Positions 10,900 through 48,812 of a DNA stretch of 64,000 nucleotides are shown in pieces. The first letter of the stretch is position 1; each line of letters begins with the position of its first letter. A program made the position numbers and the translations under genes. Source of the stretch: Alicyclobacillus herbarius DSM 13609 (GTDB lineage Bacteria; Bacillota; Bacilli; Alicyclobacillales; Alicyclobacillaceae). The stretch covers positions 62,001-126,000 of the forward strand of contig NZ_AUMH01000005.1 of NCBI RefSeq assembly GCF_000430585.1, read 5' to 3'. A model generated the notes under the pieces. The model saw nothing but the letters and a program-made list of their open reading frames with translations, did not search any database and was not told where the DNA came from.

Positions 10900-12171
10900 T
10901 TAAGATTGTTGCGATGCAAGGGTTTGCTTGGCTTGCGAGAGCACTTCGGCCGGGGATTCGTTTTGTAAAATGCCAGCTTCGGTGGCCTTGTTAATCGCAT
11001 CGACGAAATCTTGGCCAAGCGTACCAAACTGATACGGTACGGCGTTGTTTACGCCGTCGATGAAGGCTTTATAGGTCGGATATTTGTCCAAAAACTTCCC
11101 TTGCATACTTTTCCGCGAGGGGATGGCCAAGCCCGACTCGGCCGTCATTTTCAACGCGTCGGTACCAGTTAGGTAAAAGAGAAGCTTGGCCGCCTGTTCC
11201 GGATACTTGGTCGATTTTGCCATCGAGTAGCTGACGGTATAGGTCATGTTGAAATCCTTCCCGTTCGCTGAGGGAAAATCGGCTACTCCGTAATCCAGCT
11301 TTGGAGCCGTCTGTTTCATGAAGGGGACAAGCCAGGCCCCTTCAACAACCATGGCTACCTTGCCCTGGGCAAACGGGATGCCCGCCCAGTCTCCGCCAAG
11401 GTCCTTGGGCTGCGCAATGTTCTTGTTTTTAAAGTTGTCGATGAAGAATCTCAAGCCAGGGATGTTGGCCTCATCGGTAAAAGTCGCCTTGTTCTGATTC
11501 TCGTTGTAATAGCTGCCCCCAAAGTCTTTGACAAAGGGATAATAGCGAGCCACGTCAATCGGCATGCTGAGCGGAGTAATGCCTTTGGCTTTCAATTTCG
11601 CGGCATCCTTTTCGAACTCGTTCCATGTTTTGGGTGGTGACTGGATACCCGCCTTGGCGAACAGGGACTTGTTATACTCAAGGGCCAGGGTGTTCATGTC
11701 TTTCGGCAGACCGTAGGTAACGCCTTTCCATTGAAACGCCTTCAAGAGGGCGGGGCTGAAATCGCTTGTATCGACATGATCTTCCTTGATATATTTGTCA
11801 AGCGGCATCAAGACCCCCGATGCCTCCAGCGTTGGAGCATAGGAGGAATCTACATAAAACACATCGGGCGCGGTATGGGAAGCCAACATGGGTTGTAAGG
11901 CCTGCAGATAATCTCCGGTAATTACCTGCAAGGAGACCTTGATGTTTGGATTCTTCTTTTCGAACGCTTTTACTTGCCGTTCGACCAACTGTTTTTCCGC
12001 GGGACTAGAGGACCACATGCCCAGCTTCAAGGTTACAGTCTGAGCGTTGCTAGCCGTGTGGGCACTGTTGGTTGCTCCTGTGTTCCCGGTTGTTCCGCAC
12101 CCAGCAAGGGCCCCTGCACTGACAAGCAGAATACTTGTAGCTGCAAACCAGTTCCTCGACTTGATACGCAT
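10900..12171 (-). CDS. Sugar-binding lipoprotein of ABC transporter
   Basis: A 423-residue extracellular solute-binding protein. The lipoprotein signal peptide is clear: a basic start (MRIKSRN), a hydrophobic stretch and the lipobox LAGC, then a Ser/Thr/Asn-rich linker. The mature domain begins VTLKLGMWSSSPAEKQ, typical of family 1 sugar-binding proteins. ATG 12171 is preferred because it is spaced eight bases after AAGGGGG, whereas ATG 12180 directly abuts that site. The lipoprotein delivers a sugar to the permeases downstream. The neighbouring glycosidase suggests an oligosaccharide ligand such as a malto- or gluco-oligosaccharide, but this is not shown by the sequence. Confidence 0.9.
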   Translation of the reverse strand: MRIKSRNWFAATSILLVSAGALAGCGTTGNTGATNSAHTASNAQTVTLKLGMWSSSPAEKQLVERQVKAFEKKNPNIKVSLQVITGDYLQALQPMLASHTAPDVFYVDSSYAPTLEASGVLMPLDKYIKEDHVDTSDFSPALLKAFQWKGVTYGLPKDMNTLALEYNKSLFAKAGIQSPPKTWNEFEKDAAKLKAKGITPLSMPIDVARYYPFVKDFGGSYYNENQNKATFTDEANIPGLRFFIDNFKNKNIAQPKDLGGDWAGIPFAQGKVAMVVEGAWLVPFMKQTAPKLDYGVADFPSANGKDFNMTYTVSYSMAKSTKYPEQAAKLLFYLTGTDALKMTAESGLAIPSRKSMQGKFLDKYPTYKAFIDGVNNAVPYQFGTLGQDFVDAINKATEAGILQNESPAEVLSQAKQTLASQQS

Positions 12172-12229
12172 CAAATTCATCCCCCTTAATTAAATGGATG
12201 AGATAGCATTATCACGAGCTTTGGTGGTT

Positions 12230-14470
12230 TCAGCTTCCCTGGAACGACGAGTTTCCAACCGTAAACTCCTGGTCTAACACCTCCTCGTTCGCATCTGGGT
12301 GCACGGACAAGCCGGTGCTGTTGTCGAGAATTTGATACTGGGTATTGCCGTCCGCTGTCCGTTGCAACTCTAGGCTCAACGTGCCACTGCCTATCCTGAG
12401 GGACTCAATTTTGAGCCTCGGGATGGATGAGGGGAGTGACGGATTAAGGGATATATAGCCATCGGGTACGTTTGGATTGAACCCGAGAATGGCTGTCAGA
12501 ACGAGTATGGGTGTTGCGGCTGCCCACGCCTGAGGTGAACAGGATACCGGGTATGGGACGGGTTTGGAGGTCTTTCCCGCCGGAATGCCAGCAAAGAGTT
12601 CCGGGAGTCGATAGAGATCGAACCCTTGCGCGGCATTCAACAACCCTTCCACCAACTGTGCGACTGCATCACGGCGACCATACCCGGCCACCCCAGCGAT
12701 GATGATCGAATTGTCGTGCGGCCAAACAGAGCCGTTATGATAGCTGAGAGGGTTGTACGTGACCTCAAGAGTGGAGAGTGTCCGTATCCCAAACCCGCTG
12801 AACAGGTCTTCCTTCAGTAGCCGGTCAATGAGGCAATCCGCCAGTGCCTGCGGCAAGATGCCACTCCATAAGACCTGGCCCATATTGGACGTTAGCGTTC
12901 GCACTGGTTTTTTCTCCCCGTCAAGCGCGAGAGCAATCGCATCTTCGTCCTCCATCCAAAACGCCTGGATGAATTGGCGTTGCAACCGTTCGGCTCGTCT
13001 TTCGCATTCCATGGATGTGTCTGGAAGTCCAAGCCACCGATAGACTTGCGCCCAACGGGTGTATGCCCGGTAGACATAGCCTTGAACTTCGCAGAGAGCT
13101 ATCGGGCCCTTCGCAAGTGAACCGTCCTTATGGTGGATGGAGTCGCCAGAATCTTTCCAACCTTGATTGGCGATCCCGTTTGATGATTCGGAGAAATACT
13201 CAAGAAATCCGTCCCCGTCTCGGTCGCCGTACTGTTCAATCCATGCAAACGCCGCTTCAACGTGAGGAAGAAGTCTGCGCAGCCACTCTGCATCCCCACT
13301 CCAAAGCGCGTAATCAGCCGCTAAATTCAGAAACAGGGGTGTCGCGTCAATCGTGCCATAGTACGGCCCGAATGGAACCTGACCAGTTCGGGTTAGTTCA
13401 CCGGCACGCAGTTCGTGCATGATTTTCCCAGGTTGTTCGTCTCGCTCCGGGTTGACTTGCTGGCCTTGAAACGCGGCCATTGTGGCGAGCGTTCCGCGTA
13501 CAATGTCGAAATTGGCAGGGAGCATCTGTAGCGCCGTAATCAGGCTGTCTCTCCCGAAGGGCACAGCATACCAAGGGACTCCGGCCACGGGAAAGTGCCC
13601 GTAGCCAACATCCGTAAGCAGCATGCGGATATCCTGTAAGCCACGGCGATACCAGTTGGAAAACGTAGTACAGCCAGAGACACCTGGCGCTTTATGTAAC
13701 CAGTCTTCGTATTTCCTAGCAATCTGTTGTCGTACGGCAGCCACCTCTGCAAACGTAAAATCGCTGGTACTTGCATTTTGCAACGAAGTGTGTCCCTGTC
13801 CGGAGGAATCTTTCTTTGTGTGGCGTTCCACGGACGGTTGTACAGTGACGACCCATTGGCATTTTCCGCGGGCAGGGATTGTCAATTGTGCCTCGAACCG
13901 CGATCCGTCCCCTGCCGGTATCCATTCGCGTTCGTCCGCGATAAAACGTACGACGGTCGAATATTGGATTCCATCTTGTGCCGTATACCGGAAGGTTCGC
14001 GACGATGTCCCGGTTTCAACTTCAATGCGGCGCGCAAGCTTATCTCGTGGGTCCAACGTGACACCCGCACGTACTTCAAACATGTCGAGAAAGTCTGCGT
14101 CGAAACCATAGGTCACCCGTAGCGGAAGGGGCTGTGTCGAAAAGTTTTCAATCTCAACCTGTTCGTAAAAACAGTGTCCGTCCACGAATTGGGTACGCGT
14201 GATATACAGTGACTCGCGCGGAATGGTAACGTTTTCGGAAAGCCGATACTCCCTATTGGTGTAGTGATAAACCCCCTCGAAGTTTCGGGAAACATCAGAG
14301 TCTAACTTGACGAACGGGATTGGGCCAAAATCGCACGTCCATCGGCATAGGACGCGTGTGTCTTGCGTATAGAGTCCGTATCCGAAGGCATCGGTTTTTG
14401 GATCCGGGACGTTTCCGTGCGGATTCGAGACGTAGAACAGGTCATTTTCTTTGATAACGGAGAAGCTCAT
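12230..14470 (-). CDS. Amylo-alpha-1,6-glucosidase / glycogen debranching-type glycosidase
   Basis: A 746-residue protein with two parts. An N-terminal beta-rich domain (FYVSNPHGNVPDPKTDAFGYGLYTQDTRVL) matches the bacterial debranching N-domain. The C-terminal (alpha/alpha)6 barrel has GVPWYAVPFGRDSLITALQ, FLEYFSESSNGIANQGWKDSGDS and YNPLSYHNGSVWPHDNSII. The Asp in GRDS and WKDSGDS and the WPHDN segment are typical active-site features of this clan. No secretion signal is seen, so it should act in the cytoplasm. It is followed by a sugar ABC importer and preceded by a LacI regulator, and an AAAACGTTTT palindrome lies 27 bp upstream. The specific linkage cleaved is uncertain. Confidence 0.85.
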   Translation of the reverse strand: MSFSVIKENDLFYVSNPHGNVPDPKTDAFGYGLYTQDTRVLCRWTCDFGPIPFVKLDSDVSRNFEGVYHYTNREYRLSENVTIPRESLYITRTQFVDGHCFYEQVEIENFSTQPLPLRVTYGFDADFLDMFEVRAGVTLDPRDKLARRIEVETGTSSRTFRYTAQDGIQYSTVVRFIADEREWIPAGDGSRFEAQLTIPARGKCQWVVTVQPSVERHTKKDSSGQGHTSLQNASTSDFTFAEVAAVRQQIARKYEDWLHKAPGVSGCTTFSNWYRRGLQDIRMLLTDVGYGHFPVAGVPWYAVPFGRDSLITALQMLPANFDIVRGTLATMAAFQGQQVNPERDEQPGKIMHELRAGELTRTGQVPFGPYYGTIDATPLFLNLAADYALWSGDAEWLRRLLPHVEAAFAWIEQYGDRDGDGFLEYFSESSNGIANQGWKDSGDSIHHKDGSLAKGPIALCEVQGYVYRAYTRWAQVYRWLGLPDTSMECERRAERLQRQFIQAFWMEDEDAIALALDGEKKPVRTLTSNMGQVLWSGILPQALADCLIDRLLKEDLFSGFGIRTLSTLEVTYNPLSYHNGSVWPHDNSIIIAGVAGYGRRDAVAQLVEGLLNAAQGFDLYRLPELFAGIPAGKTSKPVPYPVSCSPQAWAAATPILVLTAILGFNPNVPDGYISLNPSLPSSIPRLKIESLRIGSGTLSLELQRTADGNTQYQILDNSTGLSVHPDANEEVLDQEFTVGNSSFQGS

Positions 14471-33947: not shown

Positions 33948-34490
33948 ATGCTGGGGCCGATAGCTCGCTTGTTGCCCTACATTCGCCGCCACGCTTGGGT
34001 GTATTTCGGGCTGGCCGGCACGTTGGCCATCGACATCGTGCTCTCCTTGTTTTTCGCCTGGTATTTTCAACACCTGACCGAAGCCGCCACGTCCCGCCAA
34101 CTCGCCGACGTTGAGGGTCTGGTGGTTTTGGGGCTGGGCGCGGTGATCGTGGGCAGCCTACATGCCTACGCCCTCACAGTCCTACGCGCGGCGGCCATTG
34201 GGCGCGTTCAGGCGGACCTGCGCGAAACCCTGTATCGACACTTGCTGCATGTACCGTACTCTGATTTGGCGCGCCACACCGTGGGTGAACTGGCGGCGTG
34301 CCTACTCAATGACATCGACAAGGTCGAGGGGGCGATTGGCGACAACCAGCTCAATTTGATTCGTATGCCACTCACCGGGCTGTGCGCCTTTGTCTACCTG
34401 TTGACCATCAACGTACAGCTTGCACTCATTTCCGTTCTTTTGGCTCCCCCTGCATCCTCGTCGGGCTATTGTTCTAACAAAATAGAATGA
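33948..34490 (+). pseudogene. ABC exporter, truncated within the transmembrane domain
   Basis: From ATG 33948 the product follows the transmembrane domain of an ABC-type peptide/lipid exporter (LLPYIRRHAWVYFGLAGTLAIDIVLSLFFAWYFQHLTEAA; RETLYRHLLHVPYSDLARHTVGELAACLLNDIDKVE). After residue ~165 (VQLALISVLLAP) the match ends in an unrelated tail (PASSSGYCSNKIE) and a stop. The remaining transmembrane helices and the whole ATPase domain are missing, so the gene is broken by a deletion near 34450. It is the last piece of the PqqD-peptidase locus. Confidence 0.8.
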
Positions 34491-40117: not shown

Positions 40118-40184
40118 CTGGATGCTGAAATGTGGGCCGTGGTCGGATTCGAGATCTTCACTAAACGAGAGAAATCGTTTTAAG

Positions 40185-40215
40185 AGGAACAGAGTAGCGC
40201 ACTCTGTTCCTTTTT
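40185..40215 (+). terminator. Intrinsic terminator of the acetoin dehydrogenase operon
   Basis: AGGAACAGAGT (40185-40195) and ACTCTGTTCCT (40201-40211) form a perfect 11-bp stem with a 5-base loop, followed by a T-run to 40215. Confidence 0.9.
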
Positions 40216-40382
40216 GGTGTACGGGAGGATGTGTGGGGGTGAAGAATCGGTTTGCACGTATGCCATAAGTAAATTTCCACCATGTGTCGCGTCATTCGAC
40301 GAGATCCGCTAAACTAATGAGATACAAGAATAGGACGTTCTTATGTTTGCGGAATATCCATGCAGTCTTAAGGCGGTTCGTC

Positions 40383-41909
40383 ATGCGCGATTTATTCGAA
40401 GTGATTCCCGACAACCTATTTTCCGTTCTGGCAGCGCCGAATCGGCGCGTCTATTTTCGCGCCCTGATGGTGCTGCGCGATTGCTACCAGCGCGAGGTGC
40501 AATTCCGGCGCAGTGACTTAGTCACCTACCTCATCAGCCAGATGGAAGACGATTTGGCGATGACGTCCTTTGCGGATGACGAGGTTACCGTTGGCGCCCT
40601 GGCCGACGGGGCAGGCGCCTTGCCGCCGTCTACGTCTGTCAACGCCGCGGATGGGAATGGCGAAGCTGGGGTGGACGGGGATGATCTCGATGACACGGCG
40701 ACTGTGTCCGGGCGGGCGCACGCATTGGTAAGGAAGTTGATAGATACCGGTTGGGTGGCTTCCATCACCGAGGCCAACACGTTCGAGGAAACGCTCATTG
40801 TGCCTGAGTACGCCAGCATTCTCCTCGACGCGTTGCACGCGATTGTCGATCCGCCCGAACAGCGCTACAACGCGTTTGTCTATTCCATCTACTCGACCCT
40901 GCGCACGGCCCATGAGGACCGAGACGAGTTTATGTTCCAGGCGCTGCAGAGCGCTTATGACAACACGGTCGCCCTGCGTGAGAGCCTACGTAGCCTCTTG
41001 CACAATATTCACCTTTTTTATCAAAAACTTCAAGACCGCAAAGAGATTCGCGAACTTCTCCAGGAACACTTTGACGAGTATCAGCTCGGGGTGGCGCTCA
41101 AGGTCTATCACCCGTTGAAGACCGTGGACAGCGTGTATCGCTTCCGGCCGCGCATCCTGCAGGTCCTGCGCGCCTGGCTGCAAGACCCGGATGTCCTTGC
41201 CGATATGGCAAAACGCCTACGCCTACAGCGTCCGGAGTGGGACGAATCGGAAGGCCGATACGAAGTGGTCCGCATGATTCAATTCATCATCGATACTTTC
41301 GAATCGATCGATGATACGCTGCGCGAGATTGATCGGCGTAACACGGCATACAGCCGAGCTTCGGCAGAGCGGTTGCAGTACCTGCTCAACACCGATAGAG
41401 ATGTGAAGGGAAAGCTGATTGAACTGCTCAAGGCCTTACCTCCCATCGACGCTGCGGAGGATTCTCCGCTGCTTGAAGAAATGCGGCAGCTGCCCCTGTA
41501 TCAGGTTCAGTGGGTGGATGCGGACGCCTTGTACACAGAACCCACACGCAGGCAACGAAGTAGACCACGCCCGCTCCAAGTTTCCCAGCAGGTGGCTGAG
41601 GCAGCGTTTGCGGCTGAGGCCGAGGAAATGCTCGAGCGCATGGATTCCATCTTTTCGGAGGCACGAATTGTCGAGTTTATCCTTCGACAGATGGATGAAA
41701 AAGGCGTGTTGCACACGCGGGCGCTGCGGTTGAAGGAGATGGAAGACTTCTTACGGACAATGATGGCCCTGATTAAGGCGGATGAGCCAGAAGTTCCGTT
41801 TGATGTGGAGTGGGACGAGGAGAACCAGGCGGTGGTCATCGGGGAATACCGGATTCCGGCCTTCGCGTTTGTTCGCACCGTGAATTCACAGCTGCCGAGG
41901 AGGGAATAG
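40383..41909 (+). CDS. jetA: Wadjet anti-plasmid system protein JetA (DUF5716-like)
   Basis: A 508-residue protein. ATG 40383 (MRDLFEVIPDNLFSVLAAPNRRVYF) is chosen because homologues begin at this motif and AAGGCGG lies upstream; the open frame from 40284 is not supported. The N-terminal half resembles a winged-helix subunit of a MukF/kleisin type, and the middle is helical. Its neighbours fix its identity: JetB, JetC and JetD follow in the known order. JetA is the kleisin-like subunit that bridges the SMC heads of JetC. The DUF5716-like N-terminus points to type II rather than type I (DUF3375). An Ala/Gly/Asp-rich insertion at ~75-105 looks like a flexible loop. Confidence 0.85.
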   Translation: MRDLFEVIPDNLFSVLAAPNRRVYFRALMVLRDCYQREVQFRRSDLVTYLISQMEDDLAMTSFADDEVTVGALADGAGALPPSTSVNAADGNGEAGVDGDDLDDTATVSGRAHALVRKLIDTGWVASITEANTFEETLIVPEYASILLDALHAIVDPPEQRYNAFVYSIYSTLRTAHEDRDEFMFQALQSAYDNTVALRESLRSLLHNIHLFYQKLQDRKEIRELLQEHFDEYQLGVALKVYHPLKTVDSVYRFRPRILQVLRAWLQDPDVLADMAKRLRLQRPEWDESEGRYEVVRMIQFIIDTFESIDDTLREIDRRNTAYSRASAERLQYLLNTDRDVKGKLIELLKALPPIDAAEDSPLLEEMRQLPLYQVQWVDADALYTEPTRRQRSRPRPLQVSQQVAEAAFAAEAEEMLERMDSIFSEARIVEFILRQMDEKGVLHTRALRLKEMEDFLRTMMALIKADEPEVPFDVEWDEENQAVVIGEYRIPAFAFVRTVNSQLPRRE

Positions 41910-41912
41910 CCT

Positions 41913-42596
41913 ATGGATTGGCAGCGGGAGTATATGGCACTGACCGAGAGGGACCGGGAAGAGTTGGCTCGAATTGTCAGCCTGCTGTTTGAACAGACGT
42001 TTCTGCTGCGGGATGTGTGGGATGCCAAGGAACGCCGGACGGTTACGAATCGCGATTACCGGTTTGTGGAACGGGTGCTGCCGGTGTTGCAGGCCTATCT
42101 GGCGGTGAGTGGGTTCCAACTCCAGGTGGATGGTCGGCGGGGCGTGATGGCGCTCTACAATCGCTTTGGCCGCAATCGGGCACGCGTGGACAAGCTGACT
42201 ACCTACGTGCTTTATACCCTGCGGCTCATCTATGACGAGCAGATGGAACAAGCTTCGATGCGGCACGAAGTGGTCATCCCCCTACAGGAGTTGATTGCGA
42301 AACTGCACACCTTGGGCCTGGTGGATAGGAGACTGGCTGCCACGCAGTTGGAACAGACCCTCAACCGGTTGCGCCGACGCGGCATTCTGGCGCGGGTGGC
42401 CGGGAACGCGCGGGATTTGGACAGCCGCTGGCTCATTTACCCGAGTATCACCATTTTGGTTTCGGACGAGCGTATCAACCTCCTCTACGACCGGCTGCAG
42501 GGAAGCCAGAGTGGGACGTTGACAGAGAGCGACGACTTGGGTGTGGAGAACGATCCGGATGAGGAGGCGGACAACGATGTGGAGGTGAATTTATGA
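41913..42596 (+). CDS. jetB: Wadjet anti-plasmid system protein JetB (DUF4194, MukE-like)
   Basis: A 227-residue protein starting three bases after JetA (ATG 41913). It has the MukE-like winged-helix pattern: REELARIVSLLFEQTFLLRDVWDAKERRTVTNRDYRFVERVLPVLQAYLAVSGFQL, then LRRRGILARVAGNARDLDSRWLIYPSITILVSDERINLLYDRL, and an acidic tail. JetB dimers bind the kleisin JetA within the SMC complex. The stop overlaps the JetC start by four bases (ATGA), so the two are translationally coupled. Confidence 0.88.
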   Translation: MDWQREYMALTERDREELARIVSLLFEQTFLLRDVWDAKERRTVTNRDYRFVERVLPVLQAYLAVSGFQLQVDGRRGVMALYNRFGRNRARVDKLTTYVLYTLRLIYDEQMEQASMRHEVVIPLQELIAKLHTLGLVDRRLAATQLEQTLNRLRRRGILARVAGNARDLDSRWLIYPSITILVSDERINLLYDRLQGSQSGTLTESDDLGVENDPDEEADNDVEVNL

Positions 42597-45500
42597 TTCA
42601 GCTGCGACGAATGCTGCTCGTCAATTGGCACTACATCGTCCATCAGGTGTTCGATTTTGAGCAGGTGACGTTCTTGACCGGGAAGAATGGCGCCGGCAAG
42701 TCGACCATTCTGGACGCCTTGCAGTTGGTTGTATTGGGGGACACCAGTGGTCACTACTTCAACAAGGCGGCCAATGACAACTCGAAGCGGACGTTACGCG
42801 GGTATTTGCGCGGCGAGGTGGCGGAAGAGGAGGATCACGGGGTGATATACCTACGTGACGGTCAGTTTTCCTCCTACATTGCCGTCGAGTTTGAGGATAC
42901 ACGCAAGCGGCGGCGTTTTTGTTTTGGTGTGGTCTTCGACAGTTATCCGGACGCAAGTTATGACCACCGGTTTTTCTCTTTCGACGACGCACTCCCTGAC
43001 TTTCACTTTATTCGTGACAACGTGCCCTTGGACATCCAGGCCCTGCGTCAGTGGGGACAACGGCAGCGAAAACGGTTTGAGATGTATGAGAGCAACAAGC
43101 GGTATCAGGAAGTCTTCTTGGCCAAGATGGGTCGTCTCAACGAAAAGTTCCTACGCTTGTTCCGCAAGGCGGTGCCGTTCACGCCGATTATGGACGTGGC
43201 CGGCTTTATCTCGGAGTTTGTCTGCGATGTCAAACACCAAGTGGACATTGAAGACATGCGCGAGAATATTCGTCACTACCGGCGCATGGAACAGGAATTG
43301 GAGCACGTCAAAAAGCGGATTGAGGCGCTTTTGCAGATCCAGGAGACGTACAAGAACCTGGAGACGGTGCGCGGACGGCTGCGCGTGTATCACTATCTGC
43401 TCGATCGCGCCGAGGTCCAGCGCGTGGAGGACGAGGTGACGGCGGCGCAAAACCGCCTGTCGCACTGCCAGACGGCGTTGGACCAGGTGTTGACCGAATT
43501 GACGGCGGCGGATGCAGAACACCACCAATGGCAAGACAAGCGCGACCGATTGGTCGAGGAGCGGGCGCAATCCGATGTGTACGTGAAGCAGCAGACCTTG
43601 CGAGCTGAGCGCCAGCTGCTGGAGACTCAGTACGCCGACATCAGCCGCGCGGGAGCTCGGCAGTCACGACTGTTGACCGAACATCGGGCGCGCTGGCAGG
43701 CGGTGGAGAAGGGCTTGGCCGAGGCGGTGCGCTGGTTCCAGGCACCCGCTCTGCGCGGGGACGGAGTGCCAGGTGGGGCTGGCGCGGGGGCGCAGAATGC
43801 GGCCCTAGCCGCTACAGGCGGCCACGGTGTCGACCTGGAGGCTGAGGCCGACACACTGGGCGCGGTGGCTTCCGAGTATGAACAAGCTCTCCGCCACTTA
43901 CGGATGGCCCTGGCCGCGCTGCCGACCGGCTACGTGTGGCAGGGACGCACGCTCGTGGACGTGGATGTGGAGGCTTGTCGCATTGACCTGGGGGCCCTCG
44001 CCGAAGCGGTGGAGCACTTTGAAACGGTGCACGAGGCACTGGTGGACGCCCATCGCCGGATTCGCGACGGGTTGGGCGCTTGGGAACAGGAGATGAGGGA
44101 TTTACAGCAATCCATCGCCGAATTGCGCCGTGGCATCAAGCAGTACGATGCGCCCATTGTGCGTTTGCGCCAGGTGCTGCGCGAGGGATTGAAACGTCAG
44201 ACCGGGCAGGATGTGCCAGTGGAGATTTTCGCCGACTTGCTGGAGGTGAAAAATCCAGAATGGCAGCCGGCCATCGAAGGGTATCTGCATACGCAACGCT
44301 TCTATCTCATCGTCCCGCCGGAACACTTTATCGCCGCCCTGCGCATTTATGACGAGGTCAAGCGGATCGATAAAGTGTTCGACGTAGGTCTGGTGGATAT
44401 CGGGAAGATTCTTGAGGAGCACCCGCAGCGGATGCCGGGTTGTTTGGCCGAAGAGGTGGAGACGGACAACCCGTATGCACGGGCCTACGCTGATTTCCTG
44501 TTGGGCCGCGTCATCAAGTGCGACCGGGTGGAAGATTTACGTCAACACCGTACCAGCATTACGCGTGACGGGATGCTCTACCAAAGCTTTGTGGCGCGCC
44601 AGTTGAACCCACGCCGCTGGCAGACGATGTATATCGGGAAACGGGCGATTGCTCAGCAGCTCGAGCAGAAGACATCACGCCTGGCCTTTGTGGAGCAAGC
44701 CTGCGAGCGCTGGCGGCCGCGTCTGCAGCAGGCACAGGGGTGGAGTCGGCAAGCCGTTCTCACTGGGGCGGATGTTGAAGCAGCCCGCGAGACGGACGCA
44801 CGCCTGGCGGAACTGGCCGCTTTGCAAGAAAAACTGCGCGAGGTGTTGGACAGGCTCGGGTCGCTCGACCTCACGTACTTGGCGTCGCTCGAAGCGCAGA
44901 TTGCGGAGTGCGACCAGGAACTCGCCCACATCCGCGCGCGCATGGATGACTTGCAGCGTCGCCGGGGGAACCTTGTCGGCGAGCGGGATCGCCTAGAAGG
45001 AGAGGTGCTGCCCGAGTTGAACCAACGGCTGCAAGACGCCAAATTACGCCTCGCCTCCCAGCACGATCCGCTGTTCGCTGCGGACATTGGTGAGCCTCGC
45101 TACCAACAGGAAATGGAGCGGTTAGGGTCGGTCGACACGCTTGTAGCCAACTTCGCCCGCCAGCGCTCAACCGACGCGAATCGTGAACAGGAGTACCAAC
45201 GGGAACTGATTGACCAGCGAGCGGCGTATAACAGGCAGTTTTTGGCCGGGTTTGACATTCAGCGCAGAGACAACGATGCGTACGAGGAAGAACTCCGTTG
45301 GCTCACCGAATCCCAGGCGACCGAGTACGAGGAGAAGATTCGCGAAGCCAAGGAGCGCGCTCAAATCCAGTTCCAGGAGGACTTCATCAGTAAGCTGCGC
45401 AGTAACATCGAGACGGTGGAGCAGCAGATTCGCGATCTGAACCACGCGATTCAGAGTGTGCCGTTTGGTCGTGATCGCTACCACTTTGCTGTGCGGCCGA

Positions 45501-46102
45501 ATCCGCAGTATGAGCGCTTCTACCGCATGATTACGGATGATATGCTGCTCGAGGGCTACGGGTTGTTCTCGCAGTCGTTCCAAGAGCGGCACGGAGATAC
45601 GATTGAAGAACTGTTCCGGAACATCGTCGATGTGGACGAGCAAGACCCGATGGTGCAGACAGAACTGGAGAACAATCTGAAGCGGTTTACCGATTATCGG
45701 ACGTACCTTGATTTTGACCTGGTGGTCAAAGACGAGGAAGGGCGCCAATCCCGACTCTCCCGGGTGATTGCGAAAAAGTCTGGGGGTGAGACGCAAACTC
45801 CGTTTTACATTTCCGTGCTCGCTTCGTTCGCCCAGATGTACCGCGTGCGCCAGATGGGTTTGGATAATACGCTGCGCCTGATTGTGTTCGACGAGGCGTA
45901 CAGCAAGATGGACCATCAGCGCATTCGCGAGAGCATCCGCCTCACACGTGAACTCGGGCTGCAGTTGGTTCTTTCCGCGCCGACTGAGAAAATTGCGGAT
46001 ATTGTCCCGCACGTGGACAGAACCCTGGTCGTGACACGCATCCGCAGCGAGACGCGCGTGTCCGCGTTTGACGCCAAACGGCAGGGGGTCAAGTTAGGGT
46101 GA
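42593..46102 (+). CDS. jetC: Wadjet anti-plasmid system SMC-like ATPase JetC
   Basis: An 1169-residue SMC/MukB-like ATPase. Walker A is GKNGAGKSTILDAL (residues 30-43). Two long coiled coils surround a hinge-like globular region near residues 520-690 (VEIFADLLEVKNPEWQPAIEGYLHTQRFYLIVPPEHF). At the C-terminus the ABC signature KKSGGETQTPFYISV (~1062) and Walker B LRLIVFDEAYSKMD (~1098-1111) complete the head. JetC dimers extrude DNA loops and recognise small circular DNA, handing it to JetD for cleavage. The length is normal and no key motif is missing. Confidence 0.92.
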   Translation: MIQLRRMLLVNWHYIVHQVFDFEQVTFLTGKNGAGKSTILDALQLVVLGDTSGHYFNKAANDNSKRTLRGYLRGEVAEEEDHGVIYLRDGQFSSYIAVEFEDTRKRRRFCFGVVFDSYPDASYDHRFFSFDDALPDFHFIRDNVPLDIQALRQWGQRQRKRFEMYESNKRYQEVFLAKMGRLNEKFLRLFRKAVPFTPIMDVAGFISEFVCDVKHQVDIEDMRENIRHYRRMEQELEHVKKRIEALLQIQETYKNLETVRGRLRVYHYLLDRAEVQRVEDEVTAAQNRLSHCQTALDQVLTELTAADAEHHQWQDKRDRLVEERAQSDVYVKQQTLRAERQLLETQYADISRAGARQSRLLTEHRARWQAVEKGLAEAVRWFQAPALRGDGVPGGAGAGAQNAALAATGGHGVDLEAEADTLGAVASEYEQALRHLRMALAALPTGYVWQGRTLVDVDVEACRIDLGALAEAVEHFETVHEALVDAHRRIRDGLGAWEQEMRDLQQSIAELRRGIKQYDAPIVRLRQVLREGLKRQTGQDVPVEIFADLLEVKNPEWQPAIEGYLHTQRFYLIVPPEHFIAALRIYDEVKRIDKVFDVGLVDIGKILEEHPQRMPGCLAEEVETDNPYARAYADFLLGRVIKCDRVEDLRQHRTSITRDGMLYQSFVARQLNPRRWQTMYIGKRAIAQQLEQKTSRLAFVEQACERWRPRLQQAQGWSRQAVLTGADVEAARETDARLAELAALQEKLREVLDRLGSLDLTYLASLEAQIAECDQELAHIRARMDDLQRRRGNLVGERDRLEGEVLPELNQRLQDAKLRLASQHDPLFAADIGEPRYQQEMERLGSVDTLVANFARQRSTDANREQEYQRELIDQRAAYNRQFLAGFDIQRRDNDAYEEELRWLTESQATEYEEKIREAKERAQIQFQEDFISKLRSNIETVEQQIRDLNHAIQSVPFGRDRYHFAVRPNPQYERFYRMITDDMLLEGYGLFSQSFQERHGDTIEELFRNIVDVDEQDPMVQTELENNLKRFTDYRTYLDFDLVVKDEEGRQSRLSRVIAKKSGGETQTPFYISVLASFAQMYRVRQMGLDNTLRLIVFDEAYSKMDHQRIRESIRLTRELGLQLVLSAPTEKIADIVPHVDRTLVVTRIRSETRVSAFDAKRQGVKLG

Positions 46103-47370
46103 CGAGATCGCCGTGGGCAGAACGAGTGGTCGCCGAGCTTCTGCATCGCTACGAGTCCAGCAAGGCGTTTGCGCTGGGTCAGCCGACTGCACGCAGGGTT
46201 CAACTGCGCATTGAGGAGCGCTTCGTGCCTGGCTATCTATCCGGCTTGGCCGATCCGGACCTAATTCATGCGTTTCACGCGGACCTGGTGGGCCTTGAAC
46301 GGACCGGCGTGCTGGAACTGAAGTGGGTGAAGCATGAGGAGGGCAATCTGCTCGAGCGGGTGTATCTACAGTGGTCGGGTATTGAGCGTGCCTACGCGTG
46401 GTTGGGGCGGCGGCCATTGCGGGACGAATTGGCCGACATCGCGACGGAGTTGGAGGCATGGCGCCCGCGCTTGCGTACATCGTGGCTGCAGCAGTGGCTG
46501 GACGATGTGCTCGTTCACCTCCGCGAGCAGGGGCGTTTTCCAACCAGTCTGTTGCCTGTGGAAGCGGATCGGCGTCAGTTGCTTTTGGCCGCTTTGGCCG
46601 GATGGGTGGATAAGGGTGACGAAGAGATGACCCTGCGCTTGTTCTCAAAGCGCTATTTGCGTGACAGTAAGGCGTTTGAACGCCAGGTGCAAGAGCGCTT
46701 TTTGGCCGTTGTACGCCGTTACTGGCCACCCGCACAGCGTCTGCTTGAGGTGGGAGTGGGCGACGCGGAGTTGCTGGCGGAGTTAGGCATCTCGACAAGT
46801 CACGACGATGTCGCGTTTGCCGGACCGCTCGGGCTTCGTCTCGACGGCCACGAGGTGGATGTCTCTTCGTTTCCTTATGGACTTGCGCTGGGGACGGAAT
46901 CACTGCGCAAGTTTCATGTCGTGTCAGCGCCCATCCAGCGCGTCATCACGATTGAAAATAAAGCCAACTACCGGTACTATGTGCGACAAGACAGGGCGCG
47001 TGACGAACTCGTGGTTTATCTGGCCGGATTCGCGAGTCCGGCGGTGCGCAGGTTGTTGCAGGCGGTCCGCGAGTGCTTTCTGACCCGGAGACAGCCCTTG
47101 CCGCGCCTTCAGCATTGGGGCGATTTGGACTACGGGGGCATCCTCATTCTGCAACACCTGCGCGAGTCGGTCTGGCCCGAAGCCATCTCCTGGCGGATGG
47201 AGCCGGTGTGGCTGGACAAGCTGCGGGAGTACGTGGCACCGTTTGATGCCCGTTATCGGGACAAGTTGGCGAGGTTGCTGGAAGACGAGCGGTATGTAGC
47301 CGAATGGCCACTCGTGCGAAAACTGCTCGAGGTCGGCGGGACTCTGGAGCAGGAAGCGTTTTTGGTGTAG
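46099..47370 (+). CDS. jetD: Wadjet anti-plasmid system nuclease JetD (Toprim)
   Basis: A 423-residue protein starting at GTG 46099, overlapping the JetC stop by four bases. The N-terminal ~170 residues are a helical/winged-helix region (ERVVAELLHRYESSKAFALGQPTARRVQLRIEERF). The C-terminal half is a Toprim fold like topoisomerase VI A: the metal-binding Glu in TIENKANYRYYV (~residue 285) and the acidic pair in HWGDLDYGGILILQHLRE (~338-345). JetD cuts plasmid DNA after capture by the SMC complex. All catalytic residues expected for activity are visible. Confidence 0.9.
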   Translation: MTRSPWAERVVAELLHRYESSKAFALGQPTARRVQLRIEERFVPGYLSGLADPDLIHAFHADLVGLERTGVLELKWVKHEEGNLLERVYLQWSGIERAYAWLGRRPLRDELADIATELEAWRPRLRTSWLQQWLDDVLVHLREQGRFPTSLLPVEADRRQLLLAALAGWVDKGDEEMTLRLFSKRYLRDSKAFERQVQERFLAVVRRYWPPAQRLLEVGVGDAELLAELGISTSHDDVAFAGPLGLRLDGHEVDVSSFPYGLALGTESLRKFHVVSAPIQRVITIENKANYRYYVRQDRARDELVVYLAGFASPAVRRLLQAVRECFLTRRQPLPRLQHWGDLDYGGILILQHLRESVWPEAISWRMEPVWLDKLREYVAPFDARYRDKLARLLEDERYVAEWPLVRKLLEVGGTLEQEAFLV

Positions 47371-47697: not shown

Positions 47698-48033
47698 CTA
47701 ATGCACAATCCGGTTGCGTAGTTCCTGGAGGCGATTCCACTGTTTCCGTAAGAGGTCCAGGCGCTGATCAAACGGAATGGTATCCCAGTGCTCGTACAGG
47801 TGTCGATTGGCCTCCTCAAAGCGTTCAATGGTATTAAAGAATGCTTCCGACCGTTTGTCGTAATACTTTTCGTCCGCGTAAGACCGCTCTGCGATTTGCT
47901 CAAGTCGGTGCTGCTGTTTCTCCAGGATGGCGTCAATCTCCGCTTCGTCTAACCGGTTCCAAGCGTTCATCAAGGCCTGATTCGCCAGTTCGTAACTCTG
48001 CAGCGTCTGAGCAATAACTTCCTCGTTTTTCAC
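47698..48033 (-). CDS. Hypothetical small helical protein
   Basis: A 111-residue protein starting at GTG 48033, seven bases after AAAGGAG, so translation is likely. It appears wholly alpha-helical and highly charged (RLDEAEIDAILEKQQHRLEQIAERSYADEKYYDKRSEAFFNTIERFEEANRHLYEHW), with aromatic-rich segments and no membrane helix or Cys. I do not recognise a family. The composition resembles small structural or coiled-coil adaptor proteins. It is transcribed away from the repeat protein at 48261, with which it may share a divergent promoter region. Confidence 0.6.
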   Translation of the reverse strand: MKNEEVIAQTLQSYELANQALMNAWNRLDEAEIDAILEKQQHRLEQIAERSYADEKYYDKRSEAFFNTIERFEEANRHLYEHWDTIPFDQRLDLLRKQWNRLQELRNRIVH

Positions 48034-48260: not shown

Positions 48261-48812
48261 ATGGACCCAGAATTAAAGGCTTTTCTGGAAGGGATGGAAG
48301 GCCGTCTTATCGACCGACTGGACCAAAAGGTGGACGAGGGGTTACAACGTGTCAGGTTGCAGCTCGTCGAGACGATGGACGAAAAGCTGCAGGCTATGGA
48401 ACAGCGTCTGGATGTGAAGATGGACGAAAAGCTGCAGGATATGGAACAGCGTCTGGATGTGAAGATGGACGAAAAGCTGCAGGATATGGAACAGCGTCTG
48501 GATGCGAAGATGGACGAAAAGCTGCAGGATATGGAACAGCGCCTGGATGCGAAGATGGACGCGAAGCTGCAGGATATGGAACAGCGGTTCCATGGAACCC
48601 TGCAGGAATTTGCGTCACAGATTTTGGATCAGGTTAACGTTAAGACAAATCAATTACTTAAAGAAGTCAATCAGGTCAGCCGAGACTTGCGAGATGTAAA
48701 GGAAAGGCTTGAGCACATTGAAGGTATGGTCCTTCGTCACGAAAAAATTCTGGACATCCATACCCATAAGATCGCGGTGATTGAGCAGGAAATGGAGATC
48801 GCGCGGCGGTAA
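48261..48812 (+). CDS. Coiled-coil protein with 15-residue tandem repeats
   Basis: A 183-residue protein, ATG 48261 after AGGGGG. The N-terminal ~38 residues are helical. Then five tandem units of 15 residues follow (consensus MDEKLQDMEQRLDVK, residues 39-113), the last partly diverged, and a C-terminal helical region (QVSRDLRDVKERLEHIEGMVLRHEKILDIHTHKIAVIEQE). The heptad-like spacing predicts a continuous coiled coil throughout. There is no signal peptide or membrane helix. The 45-bp DNA repeats are nearly identical, so copy number could vary between strains. Function is unknown. Confidence 0.7.
   Translation: MDPELKAFLEGMEGRLIDRLDQKVDEGLQRVRLQLVETMDEKLQAMEQRLDVKMDEKLQDMEQRLDVKMDEKLQDMEQRLDAKMDEKLQDMEQRLDAKMDAKLQDMEQRFHGTLQEFASQILDQVNVKTNQLLKEVNQVSRDLRDVKERLEHIEGMVLRHEKILDIHTHKIAVIEQEMEIARR
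48375..48599 (+). repeat. In-frame 45-bp tandem repeats within the coiled-coil gene
   Basis: Five units begin at 48375, 48420, 48465, 48510 and 48555. The middle units differ by only a few bases (for example GTG/GCG in the Val/Ala codon), and the fifth diverges in its second half. The period is 15 codons, so gain or loss of a unit keeps the frame. Confidence 0.92.

What the first reader, a model, noticed from the sequence alone, without database searches (positions are those of the whole stretch)
40383..47370. Complete Wadjet (JetABCD) anti-plasmid system of apparent type II
All four genes are intact, tightly packed (overlaps or gaps of a few bases) and carry their key motifs: SMC Walker A, signature and Walker B in JetC, and Toprim acidic residues in JetD. 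The JetA N-terminus looks like DUF5716 rather than the DUF3375 of type I. It sits between terminators and unrelated metabolic genes, as expected for a defence module.
Basis: partly seen in the sequence, partly recalled or inferred. Interest (0 to 1): 0.6.

Follow-up and report, generated by a model that had tools for sequence, protein, structure and literature searches.

The report
Ordinary type I Wadjet anti-plasmid operon
A bacterium of the Alicyclobacillus group carries a complete four-gene machine of a well-known kind that is expected to detect and cut small circular plasmids; it is of the common type I, not type II as first thought, and is an ordinary member of its family.

Summary
The four genes are real and intact: jetA 40383-41909, jetB 41913-42596, jetC 42593-46102, jetD 46099-47370, all + strand, 3 nt apart or overlapping by 4 nt. 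All four match Wadjet type I profiles far better than type II or III. ATPase motifs and Toprim residues are conserved in relatives. The modelled JetD resembles Topo VI-A, Spo11 and MksG. The host shares a genus with A. shizuokensis and A. kakegawensis, where the operon has other immediate flanks and, in A. kakegawensis, is decaying. Most likely mechanism: JetABC extrudes circular DNA and JetD cuts it, carried over from characterised type I systems, not shown here. Side observation: a relative with four intact jet frames also holds what looks like a roughly 10.3-kb circular plasmid. New member of a known kind; low interest.

The parts
40182..40214 (+). terminator-like hairpin running into a U-rich tract, after the upstream E1/E2 dehydrogenase genes and before jetA
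   Evidence: z = -4.97, 0 of 200 shuffles fold as well; not listed by the consensus scan
40370..40376 (+). Shine-Dalgarno-like AAGGCGG before the jetA ATG; left end of the DNA block shared with A. shizuokensis
40383..41909 (+). jetA, MukF-like kleisin, DUF5716/PF18982 kind
   Evidence: JetA1 2.3e-162; PF18982 4.5e-121; fold match to MukF from a weak model
41913..42596 (+). jetB, MukE-like KITE protein, DUF4194, with an acidic C-terminal tail
   Evidence: JetB1 4.9e-64; DUF4194 3.8e-23; tail composition
42593..46102 (+). jetC, MukB-like SMC ATPase with Walker A, signature and Walker B motifs
   Evidence: JetC1 E 0, 1255 bits; SbcC_Walker_B 9.5e-26; motifs
46099..47370 (+). jetD, Toprim nuclease; E286, D342, D344 and the LEQE motif (E417, E419) present
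   Evidence: JetD1 2.2e-107; JetD_C 4.1e-21

Best explanation
A complete type I Wadjet (JetABCD) operon with the DUF5716 form of JetA. JetC, JetA and JetB form a dimeric MukBEF-like SMC motor that extrudes loops of DNA; when a small circular molecule has been fully extruded, the stalled motor activates the dimeric Toprim nuclease JetD, which cuts the plasmid. Large circles and linear DNA escape. Shown here: gene content, type, motifs, a JetD fold by model, conservation in relatives. Inferred from characterised type I systems: extrusion, size sensing, cleavage, and that the operon is expressed.
For: All four subunits match type I profiles. Of 19 relatives with a jetC, four open jet frames lie on one contig in 15; in 3 the operon is cut by contig ends or split over contigs, and in 1 it is broken. 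JetC signature KKSGGETQT in 19 of 19 rows and FDEAY-KMD in 19 of 19; JetD E286, D342 and D344 in 20 of 20 rows, E417/E419 in 19 of 20, the exception being the decayed A. kakegawensis copy. The JetD model (pLDDT 91.8) matches Topo VI-A 1d3y (Foldseek 4.4e-10), C. glutamicum MksG 8b7f (5.5e-10) and Spo11 8urq (2.5e-8); VIA Z 20.0 to Topo VI-A 9o0g (rmsd 4.9, 271 aligned), 14.8 to MksG (rmsd 6.1, 331 aligned) and 13.0 to P. aeruginosa JetD 7til (rmsd 15.4, 344 aligned). The nearest solved JetC by sequence is 8dk2, 2e-11 (that this entry is the P. aeruginosa PA14 type I JetC is recalled). The 20 plasmid records with a JetC relative are all 174 kb or larger.
Against: No function was tested. The JetA model is poor (pLDDT 60). 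JetA, JetB and JetD find no credible solved relative by sequence, so the mechanism is carried over from distant relatives; the 19-row JetC profile found nothing at E <= 1e-10. No chain named as E. coli JetC is listed at E <= 1 either, so that search says little about type. A genome of the same family with four intact jet frames holds what looks like a roughly 10.3-kb circular plasmid, and of 3 family genomes with a Rep_trans initiator over cut-off (of 41), 2 carry a jet operon.
Confidence: 0.9

Rival explanations
1. Type II Wadjet, with a long-armed SMC and a channel-less hinge.
For: The JetA fold search lists the N. vireti Wadjet-II JetA (9qe0, 7.0e-5), but MukF ranks above it at 2.7e-5, so this is the general kleisin fold seen from a weak model.
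Against: All four proteins prefer type I profiles by wide margins; DUF5716 JetA is filed under type I; JetC is 1169 aa, against 1355-1365 positions in the full-length type II profiles listed.
Confidence: 0.03
2. JetABC works mainly as a chromosome-organising MukBEF/MksBEF-like condensin kept by vertical descent, with JetD a secondary or regulated part.
For: JetC and RpoB identities correlate (Mantel r 0.73, 0 of 5000 permutations as high), and the five genera with two or more sampled copies are each monophyletic in both trees. Presence is nearly all-or-none by genus.
Against: jetD is present in all 19 relatives with jetC and its catalytic residues are kept; presence in the family is patchy (16 of 41 genomes); deeper JetC branches disagree with RpoB, for instance G015 (family f1) pairs with G052 (family f2) at 0.999; the operon is decaying in A. 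kakegawensis.
Confidence: 0.06
3. A silent or inactive operon.
For: None of the 4 promoter-like sites found lies upstream of jetA; the A. kakegawensis copy is broken.
Against: Four intact frames, catalytic motifs intact, clear Shine-Dalgarno. The promoter scan covers only sigma-70 consensus sites.
Confidence: 0.05

Closest known systems
Wadjet type I, PADLOC profiles PDLC00449 / PDLC00502 / PDLC00519 / PDLC00533
   Different: JetC is somewhat longer (1169 aa against 1097 profile positions); the match to JetB ends at residue 204 of 227, before most of its acidic tail.
P. aeruginosa PA14 and E. coli GF4-3 JetABCD (type I, structures known; PMC10586767, passages)
   Same: Same four subunits; the nearest solved JetC sequence is 8dk2 (2e-11; its PA14 origin is recalled); P. 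aeruginosa JetD 7til is aligned by VIA at Z 13.0, rmsd 15.4.
   Different: No credible sequence match in the PDB for JetA, JetB or JetD and no chain named as E. coli JetC for JetC. That the JetAs of these two systems are of the DUF3375 kind is recalled and was not tested.
C. glutamicum MksBEFG
   Same: Same four-subunit logic; the MksG fold matches the JetD model. Its metal ligands E236/D279 and conserved E349/E351 (PMC10123090, passages) seem to correspond to E286, one of D342/D344, and E417/E419; this is read from motif order and spacing, not from a residue-level superposition.
   Different: The C. glutamicum control genome rings for DUF3375 and not for PF18982.
Wadjet type II, Neobacillus vireti (PDB 9qe0)
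   Same: General kleisin fold of JetA.
   Different: No N. vireti chain is listed for JetC at E <= 1; type II profiles score far lower.

Membership tests
Wadjet (any type) | kleisin, KITE, SMC and Toprim nuclease genes together in one operon | tested here: met
Wadjet (any type) | SMC Walker A, signature and Walker B motifs in JetC | tested here: met
   signature identical in 19 of 19 rows
Wadjet (any type) | Toprim acidic residues in JetD | tested here: met
   E286, D342, D344 in 20 of 20 rows
Wadjet (any type) | Toprim domain fold of JetD, like MksG/Topo VI-A | tested here: met
   (a model, no experiment)
Wadjet (any type) | N-terminal CAP-like domain of JetD | tested here: inconclusive
   MksG aligns over model residues 5-423 (rmsd 6.1), but most rows cover only 154-423 and the N-terminal part was not folded or searched alone
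Wadjet (any type) | restriction of small circular plasmids | not testable with these tools
   needs an experiment; comparative hints are mixed
Wadjet type I | type I profiles best for all four subunits | tested here: met
Wadjet type I | JetA of a kind that PADLOC assigns to type I (DUF3375 or DUF5716) | tested here: met
Wadjet type I | donut-shaped JetC hinge with a positively charged channel | not tested
Wadjet type I | IFDR motif at the JetB N-terminus contacting JetD | tested here: inconclusive
   the string is absent from the 15 JetB rows aligned; a conserved T-F/Y-L/I-x-RD-x-W stretch lies near the N-terminus. The motif is reported in a review (PMC10586767, passage) and is not shown to define the type
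Wadjet type II | type II profiles best | tested here: not met
   JetC2 at most 51.8 bits against 1255; no JetA2 or JetB2 hit at E <= 1
MksBEF condensin without nuclease | absence of a Toprim nuclease gene | tested here: not met
   jetD present here and in all 19 relatives with jetC

The most novel reading that the evidence does not exclude
The DUF5716 branch of type I, the commoner form in the phylum sample, has no solved relative of JetA, JetB or JetD that sequence search finds, and may differ from the characterised systems in control: its JetB proteins end in acidic tails (15 of 15 examined) that could gate DNA or JetD access, and what looks like a roughly 10.3-kb rolling-circle plasmid persists beside an intact-looking operon in one relative, which would mean conditional activity or a plasmid-borne escape mechanism.
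Probability: 0.1. Interest if true: 0.45.

Novelty: new member of a known kind. Interest (0 to 1): 0.15.

Why it matters
It is a routine member of a known plasmid-defence family. Its practical worth is that jetABCD would be an obvious gene removal to try if this host is hard to transform: deletion raised plasmid transfer about five orders of magnitude in Clostridium cellulovorans (PMC12287153, abstract and passages). It also corrects a typing error: DUF5716 JetA does not signal type II. A family member with both intact jet frames and a roughly 10-kb plasmid-like circle gives a concrete place to look for plasmid escape from Wadjet.

Tried and rejected
Type II assignment: rejected on profiles. 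Condensin-only role: judged unlikely (see rivals). A second JetC in the same genome: only the window's own copy was found. A fifth conserved operon gene: the DNA block shared with the two congeners stops at the jetD stop codon, and the small 47698-48033 gene keeps no fixed place. Recent carriage by a phage or plasmid: the matches in those collections are all under 60% identity (20 plasmid records, of which 4 have a place covering 80% of the query; 2 short unannotated records deposited as phages). Sequence searches of solved structures with JetA, JetB and JetD gave nothing credible. The JetA model is too weak for detailed claims. The acidic JetB tails were counted without a control set from other Wadjet families.

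Rows dropped: one JetC match (G043, E 2.6e-4, 53 residues) was set aside as coiled-coil noise. A1 (JetD) used all 20 sequences found. A2 (JetA, 17 rows) left out L031 (truncated), L042 (cut by the contig end), and L034 and L045 (no JetA on the contig). A3 (JetB) used 15 of 20 available sequences, leaving out L031, L033, L034, L039 and L043. A4 (JetC, 19 rows) left out G012, split over two contigs. The JetC/RpoB comparison used 19 of 20 genomes for the same reason, and G042's RpoB was partial (960 aa). The A1 row for G004 JetD begins too far downstream through my choice of start; one search shows the frame continuing upstream. In one search only some candidates per genome were scored (7 in most), so my notebook line that the plasmid is 'not integrated' in 41 genomes is too strong.

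Full report
What is there. The window at 40383-47370 holds four head-to-tail genes on the + strand with gaps or overlaps of 3-4 nt. The jetA start at 40383 has a Shine-Dalgarno AAGGCGG. PADLOC profiles identify JetA (2.3e-162), JetB (4.9e-64), JetC (E 0, 1255 bits) and JetD (2.2e-107), each best matched by a type I model. Pfam agrees: PF18982 'Wadjet protein JetA', DUF4194, SbcC_Walker_B, JetD_C.

Type. As a control I took two DUF3375 proteins from other genomes of the phylum and two further DUF5716 JetAs from relatives; PADLOC calls all four JetA1. Type II and III models score at most 51.8 bits for JetC and 16.6 for JetD, and none is reported for JetA or JetB at E <= 1. So this is type I. The solved-structure search adds little: the closest JetC is 8dk2 (2e-11; PA14 origin recalled), and neither an N. 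vireti type II chain nor one named as E. coli JetC, also type I, is listed at E <= 1. In a sample of 101 genomes of the phylum, the window's own included, PF18982 JetA is over cut-off in 20 (one of these a short fragment) and DUF3375 in 2; in the host's family PF18982 is found in 16 of 41 genomes, the decayed A. kakegawensis copy included.

Working parts. Across relatives, the JetC signature and the FDEAY-KMD Walker B motif are kept in 19 of 19 rows; JetD E286, D342 and D344 in 20 of 20; and E417/E419 of the LEQE motif in 19 of 20. In C. glutamicum MksG, E236 and D279 bind the metal, and two further conserved glutamates, E349 and E351, correspond to residues proposed as nucleophiles in JetD (PMC10123090, passages). 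LEQE looks like that second pair, an assignment from motif order and spacing. The JetD model (pLDDT 91.8) matches Topo VI-A, MksG and Spo11; VIA gives Z 20.0 to Topo VI-A 9o0g (rmsd 4.9), 14.8 to MksG (rmsd 6.1) and 13.0 to P. aeruginosa JetD (rmsd 15.4), most rows covering only residues 154-423. The JetA model is weak (pLDDT 60), but its five matches at E <= 0.001 are four MukBEF chains and the N. vireti Wadjet-II entry.

Mechanism. In characterised systems a dimeric JetABC motor extrudes circular DNA and JetD cuts once extrusion is complete; linear DNA and circles above about 50-100 kb escape (PMC10586767, PMC12287153, PMC12647877; passages). I infer the same here. In keeping with that, the 20 plasmid records with a JetC relative are all 174 kb or longer, although large plasmids simply hold more genes and only 4 of the 20 have a place covering 80% of the query.

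Setting and history. Upstream lie a sigma-54 activator and genes for E1-alpha, E1-beta and E2 of a 2-oxoacid dehydrogenase, followed by a strong hairpin; downstream, beyond small ORFs, an aldehyde dehydrogenase. No terminator was found right after jetD. DNA similarity to the window runs, in several pieces, from 40370 to 47369 in A. shizuokensis and from inside jetA to 47369 in A. kakegawensis, with different immediate flanks. In A. kakegawensis jetA has lost roughly its first 390 codons, and the jetD frame ends early without the LEQE motif; both are read from one draft record. JetC and RpoB identities correlate (Mantel r 0.73, 0 of 5000 permutations as high) and the five genera with two or more sampled copies stay together in both trees, but deeper branches disagree. 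The picture is stable inheritance within genera with some exchange between them.

Against a tidy story. One relative (G011) with four intact jet frames has a second contig of 18,166 bases made of about 1.77 tandem copies of a unit of roughly 10,278 bases. It codes for a Rep_trans initiator and a DnaB-like helicase, has no match in the plasmid collection at megablast level, and among the candidates scored in 41 family genomes is matched at full length only on that contig. It looks like a small circular plasmid beside an intact-looking Wadjet; an assembly artefact or an excised element is not excluded. A survey of Bacillota reports near-complete mutual exclusion of jetABCD and plasmids under 40 kb, and itself lists two small-plasmid exceptions from metagenomic samples (PMC12287153, abstract and passages). 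In the four two-contig genomes with a jet operon the second contigs are 18.2, 47.9, 56.9 and 90.0 kb; in three jet-free genomes that I looked at the extra contigs are 137.0 kb, 124.7 kb, and 91.7, 87.3 and 7.9 kb. These numbers are too few to test exclusion.

Literature. A full-text search for Alicyclobacillus with Wadjet gave one paper, seen in the listing only, on Weizmannia coagulans. I make no claim of first report.

Verdict. A known system of type I: a new member of a known kind.

Noticed in passing
L096 (G011 contig 2, 1-18166); operon at L039 6011-13282: About 1.77 tandem copies of a roughly 10.3-kb unit with a rolling-circle Rep_trans initiator and a DnaB-like helicase, in a genome that also has four intact jet frames: an apparent small plasmid coexisting with Wadjet.
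   Followed up: partly
L031:6489-7328 and 11462-12691 (A. kakegawensis): The jet operon is decaying: JetA keeps only about its last 107 conserved residues, near a fragment matching the window's dehydrogenase E1-beta gene, and the JetD frame ends early without the conserved LEQE motif.
   Followed up: partly
window 41913-42596 (JetB C-terminus) and 14 relatives: JetB ends in an acidic tail of 26-106 residues, 26-51% Asp/Glu, in 15 of 15 sequences examined; no control set was run.
   Followed up: partly
window 47698-48033 (-); L027:4703-4864; L031:6510-6604: A small gene lies downstream of jetD in the window, but only partial matches to it lie upstream of jetA in both congeners, with E1-beta and aldehyde dehydrogenase fragments in L031: the neighbourhood has been rearranged around the operon.
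   Followed up: partly
L039:6011-7489 (JetD of G011): JetD carries a long Ser/Gly/Pro repeat insertion ahead of the Toprim motifs, much longer than in its two congeners L037 and L040.
   Followed up: no
window 48261-48812: A 183-residue protein with near-identical tandem repeats; a different repeat-bearing protein follows jetD in both congeners (L027:12859-13383, L031:12860-13285).
   Followed up: no
window 33948-34490: A 180-residue ORF matching only part of an ABC transporter membrane domain, possibly a gene remnant.
   Followed up: no
phage records MT836704.1 and MT835591.1: Two short unannotated records deposited as phages from human faecal samples encode distant JetC relatives at 25-29% identity.
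   Followed up: no
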